A stretch of 37,199 nucleotides of DNA, from assembly GCA_030040155.1 (NCBI GenBank), contig JASHUG010000366.1:1-37199 (forward strand), read 5' to 3'. Shown here in pieces: positions 4,642 through 7,507 of this stretch. A program made the translations under genes and the position numbers. Under the pieces are notes generated by a model, which did not search any database, was not told where the DNA came from, and saw only the letters and a program-made list of their open reading frames with translations. Source of the DNA: Streptosporangiaceae bacterium (GTDB lineage: Bacteria; Actinomycetota; Actinomycetes; Streptosporangiales; Streptosporangiaceae). Position 1 is the stretch's first letter, and each line of letters starts with the position of its first letter.

Positions 4642-4670
4642 TTGACAACCTCTGGCCTAGCCGTGACAAA
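4642..4670 (+). promoter_or_regulatory. Candidate promoter of the GH18-like gene
   Basis: A perfect -35 hexamer TTGACA (4642-4647) is followed after 17 bases by GACAAA (4665-4670), a poor -10. It lies about 90 bases upstream of the ATG at 4763 and just upstream of a palindrome that would cover the start of the transcript. The -35 is seen directly; the -10 assignment is weak. Confidence 0.4.
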
Positions 4671-4687: not shown

Positions 4688-4704
4688 TTAGGAAACTTTC
4701 CTAA
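4688..4704. promoter_or_regulatory. Perfect 17-bp palindrome, candidate operator
   Basis: TTAGGAAA-C-TTTCCTAA is a perfect 8-1-8 palindrome, 58 bases upstream of the GH18-like start codon and just downstream of the TTGACA box. From memory, similar TTAGGAAA/TTTCCTAA palindromes precede secreted chitosanase and other glycan-hydrolase genes in Streptomyces and bind ROK-family repressors such as CsnR. The palindrome is seen directly; the repressor is an inference. Confidence 0.6.
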
Positions 4705-4762: not shown

Positions 4763-7507
4763 ATGCTTCGGATGCGTTTGCTAGCAGGCCTAGGGGCGCT
4801 CGCCTGTGCGGCTGGAATGACATTTGCGATCGGCGGGCAGGCCGCGGCCTCCGTGCACGAAACTGTCCCAGCCAGAGCGGCCGCTGCCCATGGGGCGATG
4901 ACCGCGCGCCGAACCGCCTCGGGTGCTGGCGATGGCGCGTCGTCGGCCGCGGTGGCTGCAGTGCGGGCCAAGGTGCTGCCGCCGCATGTCTTCGCGCCTT
5001 ACTACTCAAACGGCTCGGACACGCTGGCCGCAACGTCGAAGGCGTCTGGTGCGAAGTACCTGACACTCGCCTTCCTGCAGACTGCCAAGCCTGGTTCCTG
5101 CACCGTGGATTGGAACGGCGATCCGCAGACACCAGTTGGCAAGACCTACGCGGCGGGTATTGCGGCCGTGCAGAAGGCCGGCGGCAATGTGGTCCCCTCG
5201 TTCGGCGGTGCCTACGCCGACGCCGTCGATGAGGAGATCGCTGACAGCTGCCACAGCGTCAGCAAGATCGCTGCCCAGTACGAGAAGGTGATCACGACTT
5301 ACCACGTGACCCGCCTTGATCTGGACACCGAGGAAGACTCGCTCAACAACTACGCCGGCATCAACCGGCGGAACGAGGCCATCGCGATGGTCGAGCGGTG
5401 GGCCGCCCGGACGCACCGCGTCGTTCAGTTTGTGTACACGATCCCGACCAACACCACCGGCATCGACCAGGGCGGGTCGGTCGTGCTGGCAAACGCTGTC
5501 GCGAACCACGCCAAGATCGCCATCGTCGACATCATGACGTTCGACTACTACGACAACCTGCCGCACGAGATGGCCGACAACACCGAGGACGCCGCGCAGC
5601 AGCTGTTCGACCGGCTGCATGAGCTGTATCCGGCCAAGTCGGCCAGCCAGCTGTGGGGGATGATCGGCATCTGCGAGGACCTGGGCGTCGACGACTACGG
5701 CCCGGCCGAAACTCTCACCGTGGCCGACGCGCATACGGTCGAGCGCTGGGCGGCGGCCCGTGGTCTGGCCGAGCTCTCCTTCTGGAACATCCAGGATGAC
5801 AACACCGCGGGCAGCCACGTGAAGCAGGCGCCGTACGCGTACGCGCATGCGTTCGAGCCGTTCACCAGCTCGGCGCCGGTACGGGGCGGCTCGGTTGCGC
5901 CGGGCGCCGGACCGAGCCTCGGTCCGGACCACCAGAGCGGTAACTTCCGATCGGTCTCCTGTCCGACCGCGTCGTTCTGCATGGCGGTGGACGAGTCGGG
6001 GAACAACGCGCTGCGCTGGAACGGGACCTCGTGGTCGCGGCCGGTCACGATCGACCCCGGCGGCTTCACGGTCGAGCTGACCAGCATCTCGTGCCCGTCC
6101 GACCAGTTCTGCGTGGCCGTGGATACCCTGGGCCGCGCGCTCATGTGGAATGGCCGGTCGTGGTCCGGGCCGAGAGCGATCGACCCGCGTGGCGCGGGAA
6201 TGGAGTCCGTGTCGTGCCCGAGTGCGTCGTTCTGCATCGCGGTCGACGGCAACGGCAACGCGCTCACCTGGAACGGCAGCTCCTGGACCCGCCCGGTCCG
6301 CATCGACGACACGGGTACCAACATCGGGTCCGTGTCCTGTGCGTCAGCGACCTTCTGCGCGGCCGGCGACTGGGGCGGCTACGTCCTGACCTTCAACGGC
6401 AAGAAGTGGTCCAAGCCGCAGCTCGTCGACCCGACGAACACGGCCGAGACCACCGGCGGCGGCATCGGCTCGATGGCCTGCCCAACGAGCTCGTTCTGCG
6501 TGGGTCTCGACTGGGAGGGCGGGTCGGTGACCTACAACGGTCACGCGTGGAAGCGCGACACGACCTTCGACCCTGACGGCGCCGAGGGCCTGATGGAAGT
6601 CTCCTGCACGTCCGCATCGTTCTGCATGGCGGTCGACGGCGGGAACGACTTGATCTGGAATGGCAGCGCGTGGACGAGCCCGAACTCCATCGACGTGACC
6701 GGGGACGGCATTGAGGACGTGTCCTGCGGGTCGATGACCTCGTGCATGGTGGTCGACTGGGACGGTAACGCGCTGCACTGGAACGGGACTTCCTGGCCGG
6801 CGACGGCTGTCTCCTGTCCCGACACGACGACCAATAGCGCTGGCGACTGCACGACGACGGGCAGCTACGCCGATGCGCGCACTGGCGTGCTCGACTCCGT
6901 GTCCTGCCCGACCGTGTCCTTCTGCGCGGCGGTGGACGGCAACGGCAATGCCCTCACGACTAACGGCGCTGTCGGCCGCCGTGATCCGCGGTGGGGCCGG
7001 CCGGTAACCATCGACCCCATCGCCGGGATCCTGCGCTCGGTTTCGTGCCCGACGGCGTCGTTCTGCATGGCGGTCGACGCGAATGGATATGCGCTGCAGT
7101 GGAACGGCGAGTCATGGTCGCAGCCGACGTGGTCGGCAGCTAGTCCGGAAGACCGGCTTGGTGGTGCGCTGGCGAGCGTCTCTTGCTCCTCGGCCGCGTT
7201 CTGCGTTGCGGTGGACGGCAACGGGCGGGAGCTGACCTGGAACGGCGCGTCGTGGTCGGCGCCGCGTGCGGTGGATCCGCATGGCGGCGGGCTGACCGGG
7301 GTGTCGTGTTCGTCGGCGTCATTCTGCGCGGCGGTGGATGCGGATGGCCGGGCGCTGACGTGGGATGGCGCGTCGTGGTCGGCGCCGCGTGCGGTGGATC
7401 CGCGCGGTGGCGGGCTGACCGCGGTGTCGTGCGGGAGTCGCGGCTACTGCGTCGCGACCGACTATGACGGCCAGACGGTTTCGGTCCGCGGTCTGGCCTC
7501 GCGCTGA
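4763..7507 (+). CDS. Secreted GH18-like protein with 12 C-terminal CX5C propeller-like repeats
   Basis: This is a 914-residue exported protein. A signal peptide covers about residues 1-30 (positive start, hydrophobic core, AAA near the cut). Residues about 75-365 resemble a GH18 chitinase-type barrel: FAPYYSNG at the start, VVPSFGG, DLDTE at 186-190 giving the catalytic DxDxE, and SFWNIQDDN near the end. The outermost Asp of the usual DxxDxDxE is replaced (TRLDLDTE), so full activity is uncertain. From residue about 395 to the end run 12 repeats of about 41 residues with the pattern SVSCxxxxFCxAVDxxGxxxxWNGxxW. GGGAG ends 4 bases before the ATG; an in-frame ATG at 4772 is an alternative. A strong hairpin follows the stop. 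The probable role is binding and perhaps cutting chitin-like or peptidoglycan-like glycans outside the cell. Confidence 0.85.
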   Translation: MLRMRLLAGLGALACAAGMTFAIGGQAAASVHETVPARAAAAHGAMTARRTASGAGDGASSAAVAAVRAKVLPPHVFAPYYSNGSDTLAATSKASGAKYLTLAFLQTAKPGSCTVDWNGDPQTPVGKTYAAGIAAVQKAGGNVVPSFGGAYADAVDEEIADSCHSVSKIAAQYEKVITTYHVTRLDLDTEEDSLNNYAGINRRNEAIAMVERWAARTHRVVQFVYTIPTNTTGIDQGGSVVLANAVANHAKIAIVDIMTFDYYDNLPHEMADNTEDAAQQLFDRLHELYPAKSASQLWGMIGICEDLGVDDYGPAETLTVADAHTVERWAAARGLAELSFWNIQDDNTAGSHVKQAPYAYAHAFEPFTSSAPVRGGSVAPGAGPSLGPDHQSGNFRSVSCPTASFCMAVDESGNNALRWNGTSWSRPVTIDPGGFTVELTSISCPSDQFCVAVDTLGRALMWNGRSWSGPRAIDPRGAGMESVSCPSASFCIAVDGNGNALTWNGSSWTRPVRIDDTGTNIGSVSCASATFCAAGDWGGYVLTFNGKKWSKPQLVDPTNTAETTGGGIGSMACPTSSFCVGLDWEGGSVTYNGHAWKRDTTFDPDGAEGLMEVSCTSASFCMAVDGGNDLIWNGSAWTSPNSIDVTGDGIEDVSCGSMTSCMVVDWDGNALHWNGTSWPATAVSCPDTTTNSAGDCTTTGSYADARTGVLDSVSCPTVSFCAAVDGNGNALTTNGAVGRRDPRWGRPVTIDPIAGILRSVSCPTASFCMAVDANGYALQWNGESWSQPTWSAASPEDRLGGALASVSCSSAAFCVAVDGNGRELTWNGASWSAPRAVDPHGGGLTGVSCSSASFCAAVDADGRALTWDGASWSAPRAVDPRGGGLTAVSCGSRGYCVATDYDGQTVSVRGLASR
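5945..7504 (+). repeat. Twelve tandem about 41-codon repeats with paired cysteines
   Basis: The encoded unit is SVSC-x5-C-x-AVD-x-x-G-x-A-L-x-WNG-x-SW, then a variable PxxIDPxG linker. Ten units have the CX5C pair in full form; unit 7 (SCGSMTSC) keeps it with a long insertion after it, and unit 12 is truncated before a WNG. The last full units are nearly identical at DNA level: 37 bases at 7244-7280 recur at 7367-7403, an offset of 123 bases or 41 codons, which points to recent duplication. Confidence 0.9.

What the first reader, a model, noticed from the sequence alone, without database searches (positions are those of the whole stretch)
4763..7507. GH18-like domain fused to 12 CX5C/WNG repeats
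The C-terminal 520 residues are 12 repeats of about 41 residues, each with a CX5C pair, an AVDxxG turn and WNGxxW. This looks like a beta-propeller-like or ring-like array stabilised by a disulfide per repeat and exported with a GH18-like domain whose outer catalytic Asp is replaced. It could be a glycan-binding or adhesion device rather than a simple chitinase.
Basis: partly seen in the sequence, partly recalled or inferred. Interest (0 to 1): 0.6.

Follow-up and report, generated by a model that had tools for sequence, protein, structure and literature searches.

The report
Secreted chitinase carrying twin propeller domains
This soil-actinobacterium gene most likely encodes a working, exported chitinase fused to two disulfide-braced, seven-bladed propeller domains that probably grip sugar or cell wall, and it carries the DNA switch that other bacteria use to turn on chitosan digestion.

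Summary
ORF 4763-7507 (+) is a 914-aa secreted-type protein with a GH18 domain (about residues 70-365) and 12 CX5C repeats (396-914). Three parts of the interpretation change.

(1) The GH18 domain looks catalytically intact. DxDxE is present, and the supposedly lost outer Asp is also Thr in the solved Pyrococcus furiosus chitinase and Exochitinase 1.

(2) The repeats are not one 12-unit ring. All four orthologues have exactly 14 = 7+7 repeats, and most relatives have 7 or 14. The first seven repeats model as a closed seven-bladed propeller (Z about 30). The design is two propellers in tandem; the window copy lacks two blades of the second, by deletion or assembly collapse. No Pfam or NCBIfam model covers the repeat.

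(3) A perfect TTAGGAAACTTTCCTAA palindrome 75 bp before the start codon matches the CsnR-box, the operator of the chitosanase repressor. Similar boxes precede 16 of 31 homologous GH18 genes, against 0 of 640 shuffles. This extends a published exception, Streptosporangium roseum.

Best reading: a chitosan-inducible secreted GH18 chitinase whose twin propellers occupy the slot of carbohydrate-binding modules in its homologues. Ligand binding itself is inferred.

The parts
4642..4647 (+). TTGACA, -35-like element; CTTGACA/CTTGACG also precedes the operator in orthologues L039, L040 and paralogue L005
   Evidence: Read from sequence; not experimentally mapped
4688..4704 (.). Perfect palindrome TTAGGAAACTTTCCTAA = CsnR-box consensus (AGGAAANTTTCCT), 75 bp upstream (box start to ATG) of the gene
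   Evidence: Only match in the window, 0 in 100 shuffles; 1 exact and 1 one-mismatch site in the whole genome, the other upstream of a second GH18 gene; operator sequence in PMC3048496 and PMC6097792
4763..7507 (+). GH18-propeller protein gene, 914 aa
4763..4852 (+). Signal-peptide-like N-terminus (MLRMRLLAGLGALACAAGMTFAIGGQAAAS)
   Evidence: Read from sequence; orthologue L010/L039 has the same type
4970..5857 (+). GH18 TIM-barrel domain, about residues 70-365
   Evidence: phmmer to PDB 9buf (E 1.7e-27) and 2dsk/3a4w/3a4x
5318..5332 (+). Catalytic motif D186-L-D188-T-E190 (DxDxE)
   Evidence: invariant in the four orthologues
5948..6892 (+). Propeller 1: repeats 1-7 (residues 396-710, including the 60-residue seventh repeat with the linker to propeller 2)
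   Evidence: AF2 model residues 1-287 superpose on seven-bladed propellers, Z about 30
6893..7504 (+). Propeller 2: repeats 8-12 (residues 711-914); seven repeats in all four orthologues, two missing here
7175..7420 (+). Near-identical tandem units 10 and 11 (79% DNA identity, 37-bp exact repeat), the place where two blades are missing relative to orthologues

Best explanation
A secreted GH18 chitinase, predicted active, that hydrolyses chitin or partly deacetylated chitin (chitosan-like wall polymer). Its C-terminal tandem of two seven-bladed, disulfide-braced beta-propellers acts as a carbohydrate- or wall-binding accessory module. Transcription is held off by a CsnR-type ROK repressor at the palindrome before the gene and released by chito-oligosaccharides. 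Shown by computation: domain order, intact catalytic motif, heptad organisation, propeller fold of the first half, operator match and its conservation. Inferred: catalytic activity, secretion, disulfide formation, ligand binding, repressor binding and inducer. The window copy lacks two of the fourteen blades.
For: GH18: E 1.7e-27 to solved chitinases with an aligned, intact DxDxE. Heptads: four orthologues all have 7+7 repeats; complete ORFs of the repeat family peak at 7 (14 ORFs) and 14 (11 ORFs). Fold: AF2 model (mean pLDDT 78); repeats 1-7 superpose on designed seven-bladed nvWRAP-T (Z 30.7, 2.4 A over 275 residues) and streptogramin B lyase (Z 30.1); profile hits to LST8 (1.5e-4) and fungal lectin tectonin 2 (2.5e-4) in the PDB. 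Regulation: perfect CsnR-box (PMC3048496 and PMC6097792). In relatives the same exact box precedes CsnR-like ROK genes, ABC sugar-binding proteins, CBM2 enzymes and GH18 genes. Sixteen of 31 distinct GH18 homologue loci have a box with at most 3 mismatches, 0 of 640 shuffles. Module slot: homologous GH18s carry CBM2, CBM5/12, CBM4/9, CBM6 or ricin-B lectin, some of them (CBM2, CBM5/12) under the same box.
Against: The second propeller has only five repeats in this copy and may not close. The own genome (73.6% complete) holds no close CsnR orthologue: best ROK 36-37% identity, while five congeners have one at 46-47%. No direct ligand evidence: the repeats have no Pfam or NCBIfam family and the fold matches are generic propellers. 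The second AF2 job (full orthologue) failed (pLDDT 47).
Confidence: 0.6

Rival explanations
1. The propellers are not sugar-binding but bind a protein or peptide, or serve as a protease-resistant spacer or surface anchor; the GH18 part is an ordinary chitinase.
For: Propellers are general-purpose binding scaffolds; the same repeats occur C-terminal to zinc-ribbon/transmembrane segments and alone in many actinobacterial proteins; best structural matches are generic (Gbeta, WD61).
Against: In homologous GH18 enzymes the slot is filled by known sugar-binding domains; the profile touches tectonin 2, a lectin, and two relatives touch Tectonin/Tachylectin below threshold.
Confidence: 0.3
2. The GH18 domain is a non-catalytic chi-lectin and the whole protein is an adhesin.
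For: The outer Asp of DxxDxDxE is Thr183; Pfam GH18 score lies below its cut-off.
Against: DxDxE is intact, the aligned Thr is present in 9buf and 2dsk, which are deposited as chitinases, and P. furiosus PF1233 is described as an endochitinase (PMC3575233). The DxDxE core is invariant in orthologues.
Confidence: 0.07
3. The 12-repeat array in the window is an assembly artefact: the true gene has 14 blades and short-read assembly collapsed two 123-bp units. (Compatible with the best explanation; it concerns only the blade number.)
For: Metagenome-assembled genome; the tandem units share a 37-bp exact repeat (79% identical overall) exactly where the two units are missing; all four orthologues have 14.
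Against: A true in-frame deletion by recombination between the same units would look identical; 37 bp is short relative to usual read lengths.
Confidence: 0.45
4. The palindrome is bound by another ROK repressor (e.g. a relative of the one on contig C390) with a different inducer, so the gene is not chitosan-controlled.
For: No close CsnR in the incomplete own genome; the ROK gene on C390 has its own, different palindrome TTAGGACAGTATCCTAA.
Against: In relatives the exact box sits before CsnR-like ROK genes, SBP genes and a GH4-like gene, i.e. the csnREFGHK type of gene set (PMC6097792); congeners have a CsnR-like ROK with an ACAGGAAACTTTCCTAT box upstream.
Confidence: 0.2

Closest known systems
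P. furiosus chitinase PF1233 catalytic domain (PDB 2dsk, 3a4w, 3a4x) and Exochitinase 1 (PDB 9buf)
   Same: GH18 domain aligned over about 280 residues, DxDxE core, Thr at the outer position
   Different: No propellers in the solved constructs; accessory domains elsewhere in such enzymes are CBMs
Streptomyces-type modular chitinases (GH18 with CBM2/FN3 or CBM5/12)
   Same: Secreted GH18 plus an accessory module; in this bacterial family several share the CsnR-type box
   Different: Accessory module is a twin seven-bladed propeller instead of a CBM
CsnR/csnREFGHK chitosan-utilisation regulon (Streptomyces lividans/coelicolor)
   Same: Operator sequence; in relatives the same classes of target genes
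   Different: Classical targets are GH46, GH2, GH5 and GH75 chitosanases; here GH18. One strain, Streptosporangium roseum, was already reported to have CsnR-boxes at chitinase genes (PMC6097792)
Lectin beta-propellers (tectonin 2, tachylectin-2) and tandem WD40 propellers (Aip1, Utp21)
   Same: Repeat length, propeller fold, tandem arrangement
   Different: Conserved CX5C in every blade; no family-level match above a curated cut-off; no WD40 model match

Membership tests
Glycoside hydrolase family 18 | DxDxE catalytic motif | tested here: met
   D186-L-D188-T-E190, aligned to DFDIE of 9buf and 2dsk
Glycoside hydrolase family 18 | Sequence homology over the barrel | tested here: met
   E 1.7e-27 over residues 76-354 to 9buf
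Glycoside hydrolase family 18 | Pfam PF00704 gathering score (a curation threshold, not a biological feature) | tested here: inconclusive
   22.1 bits against 29.6; close homologues also score low, e.g. L055 22.7
Glycoside hydrolase family 18 | Hydrolytic activity | not testable with these tools
   Needs an assay
Seven-bladed beta-propeller | Seven repeats per closed domain, propeller 1 | tested here: met
   Repeats 1-7, linker, second set; model residues 1-287 match seven-bladed propellers, Z about 30
Seven-bladed beta-propeller | Seven repeats in propeller 2 of the window copy | tested here: not met
   Five repeats in the window, seven in all four orthologues
Seven-bladed beta-propeller | Four-stranded antiparallel blades | tested here: inconclusive
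   DSSP gives three clear strands and short bridges per repeat
WD40 repeat family | Match to a WD40 Pfam model | tested here: not met
   No WD40 family among Pfam hits up to E = 1
Tectonin/tachylectin lectin propellers | Match above the curated Pfam cut-off | tested here: not met
   Window: no hit. Relatives L045 and L046: 27.4 and 24.5 bits against 30 and 29.8
CsnR regulon | CsnR-box (AGGAAANTTTCCT) in the promoter | tested here: met
   4688-4704, perfect (consensus)
CsnR regulon | csnR orthologue in the genome | tested here: inconclusive
   None close in the 73.6%-complete own genome; in five of eight congeners at 46-47% identity
CsnR regulon | Repressor binding and induction by chitosan oligomers | not testable with these tools
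   Needs EMSA and expression data

The most novel reading that the evidence does not exclude
The CX5C seven-bladed propellers are an undescribed, widespread actinobacterial family of extracytoplasmic glycan- or wall-binding modules, reused behind GH18 catalytic domains, behind zinc-ribbon/transmembrane receptors and in stand-alone secreted proteins. In the Streptosporangiaceae, chitin and chitosan breakdown are merged under one CsnR-type switch.
Probability: 0.3. Interest if true: 0.6.

Novelty: new variant of a known kind. Interest (0 to 1): 0.42.

Why it matters
The repeat family is common in soil actinobacteria and relatives but has no Pfam or NCBIfam model, so many secreted and membrane proteins may go unannotated. 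Fused to a GH18 enzyme with a known operator, it offers a concrete ligand guess (chitin or chitosan) that can be tested with one recombinant domain. The operator survey broadens a single published exception, Streptosporangium roseum, into a trait of many GH18 genes in the family.

Tried and rejected
AF2 on the full-length 14-blade orthologue L039 with a five-sequence alignment gave pLDDT 47 and was not used. Pfam and NCBIfam on the window protein gave no repeat family; the two NCBIfam hits (TA_Rv0910_toxin, phage_tail_L) are far under their cut-offs and were discarded. A viral-contig scan found no relative. In plasmid records no match covers 80% of the query; the best, in Embleya, is a GH18 enzyme that ends in an Ig-like region and a CBM5/12-like tail and has no box. 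No DasR dre site in the 460 bp upstream. The reverse strand of the finding has stops and no support. A single 12-bladed ring was rejected on orthologue counts. Whether the missing blades are a deletion or an assembly collapse could not be settled: DNA identities of the remaining units to the orthologue's units are too even. Neighbouring genes (MoCo-binding dehydrogenase, SDR, pirin, TetR, FAD monooxygenase, MFS) show no functional link. Paper searches found no description of the GH18-propeller fusion.

Full report
Observation. ORF 4763-7507 on the + strand encodes 914 residues. It begins with a signal-peptide-like stretch, followed by a GH18 domain and 12 repeats with CX5C in every unit. The finer motifs are looser than stated: AVDxxG in 7 and WNGxxW in 7 of the 12 repeats. 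The genome is a 5.6-Mb assembly, 73.6% complete; its named relatives are Streptosporangiaceae metagenome-assembled genomes.

The enzyme domain. Pfam sees GH18 only below threshold (22.1 against 29.6 bits), but phmmer against solved structures gives 9buf 'Exochitinase 1' (E 1.7e-27) and the P. furiosus chitinase 2dsk/3a4w/3a4x (E 3e-26 and weaker) over almost the whole barrel. In that alignment the query's LDLDTE faces VDFDIE and LDFDIE, so D186, D188 and E190 are intact. PF1233 is described as having endochitinase activity (PMC3575233). The sequence therefore gives no reason to call this domain dead. Two more GH18 paralogues of the same subfamily lie on contigs C299 and C159, and a shorter fragment matches on C339.

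The repeats. Four orthologues with the same architecture (L008 to L011; named records L037 to L040) have 14 repeats each, seven before and seven after a conserved 60-residue seventh unit. The window has seven plus five. Across complete ORFs carrying the repeat, counts are 7 in fourteen and 14 in eleven; several of the others show a double-length gap where one repeat escaped the pattern. Zinc-ribbon/transmembrane proteins of the family have exactly seven, preceded by a W-x-x-P-x-x-ID segment that resembles the last strand of a blade, as in velcro closure (the closure is an inference). An AF2 model of window residues 390-914 (mean pLDDT 78, pTM 0.57) shows regular strand triplets per repeat. Foldseek returns tandem propellers. 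The structural second look aligns model residues 1-287, i.e. repeats 1-7, to seven-bladed propellers: nvWRAP-T Z 30.7, 2.4 A, 275 residues; streptogramin B lyase Z 30.1. The second half was barely tested by that search. A profile of the domain finds LST8 (1.5e-4) and the fungal lectin tectonin 2 (2.5e-4) in the PDB by sequence. The reading is two seven-bladed propellers in tandem, not one 12-unit ring.

Why twelve here. Units 10 and 11 are 79% identical in DNA with a 37-bp exact repeat, and the alignment gap of two units falls there. An in-frame deletion and an assembly collapse both fit; reads would decide.

The switch. A perfect palindrome TTAGGAAACTTTCCTAA lies at 4688-4704. The same letters form the operator of the Kitasatospora chitosanase gene csnN106, which binds the ROK repressor CsnR of Streptomyces lividans (PMC3048496); a review gives the CsnR-box consensus AGGAAANTTTCCT and the csnREFGHK cluster (PMC6097792). 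In the whole own genome one exact and one one-mismatch site exist, the second upstream of the GH18 paralogue on C159; the C299 paralogue has ATAGGAAAGTTTCCTAT. Orthologues L039 and L040 have boxes with 2 and 3 mismatches. In 100 related genomes the exact box occurs in 22, and the pattern read backwards in none of those listed. Genes just downstream include CsnR-like ROK repressors, ABC sugar-binding proteins, a GH4-like gene, CBM2 enzymes with GH18 or GH5, and GH18 genes of the window's subfamily (the SBP and GH4 labels are read from the sequences, not from a family scan). Conversely, of 32 GH18 homologue loci with enough upstream DNA (31 distinct; L053 and L168 are one gene), 17 (16 distinct) have a box with at most 3 mismatches within 700 bp, against none of 640 shuffled stretches (mononucleotide shuffles). 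The review reports that CsnR-boxes are generally absent from chitin genes, with Streptosporangium roseum as the one exception. The present data make that exception look like a family trait; this is an extension of published work, not a first report.

The regulator. The own assembly lacks a close CsnR; five of eight congeners have one at 46-47% identity to the box-associated ROK L057, with ACAGGAAACTTTCCTAT upstream. Incompleteness of the assembly is the simplest reason for the absence.

What the propellers do. In GH18 homologues the accessory slot holds CBM4/9, ricin-B lectin, CBM6, CBM5/12 or CBM2. By position, and by the weak tectonin and tachylectin similarity, sugar or wall binding is the most likely role. 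It is not shown. A protein-binding or spacer role stays open.

Verdict. It is a new variant of a known kind (modular GH18 chitinase), with an unnamed repeat family worth describing.

Noticed in passing
L013, L015, L017, L018: Double zinc ribbon, proline-rich stretch, transmembrane helix, then exactly seven CX5C repeats: looks like a membrane-anchored propeller sensor family; no function was found for it here.
   Followed up: partly
L173, L176: ORFs of about 1360-1400 aa; in L173 a GT2-type glycosyltransferase is fused to a GH18 domain, with CBM5/12-like tails in both; similar ORF lengths in several relatives.
   Followed up: no
L142, L143 (G000:C390): A second ROK regulator type carries its own palindrome TTAGGACAGTATCCTAA upstream, related to but distinct from the CsnR-box.
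   Followed up: no
L002/L097 (G000:C357): The own genome has a secreted-type seven-repeat protein with a looser SVSC/WNG repeat of 45-58 residues.
   Followed up: partly
L046:4860-8909 (Solirubrobacterales): About 20-21 repeats (possibly three propellers) followed by Ig-like domains; weak Tachylectin match.
   Followed up: no
L081: A GH4-like (csnH-type) gene starts directly at a CsnR-box in a related genome.
   Followed up: no
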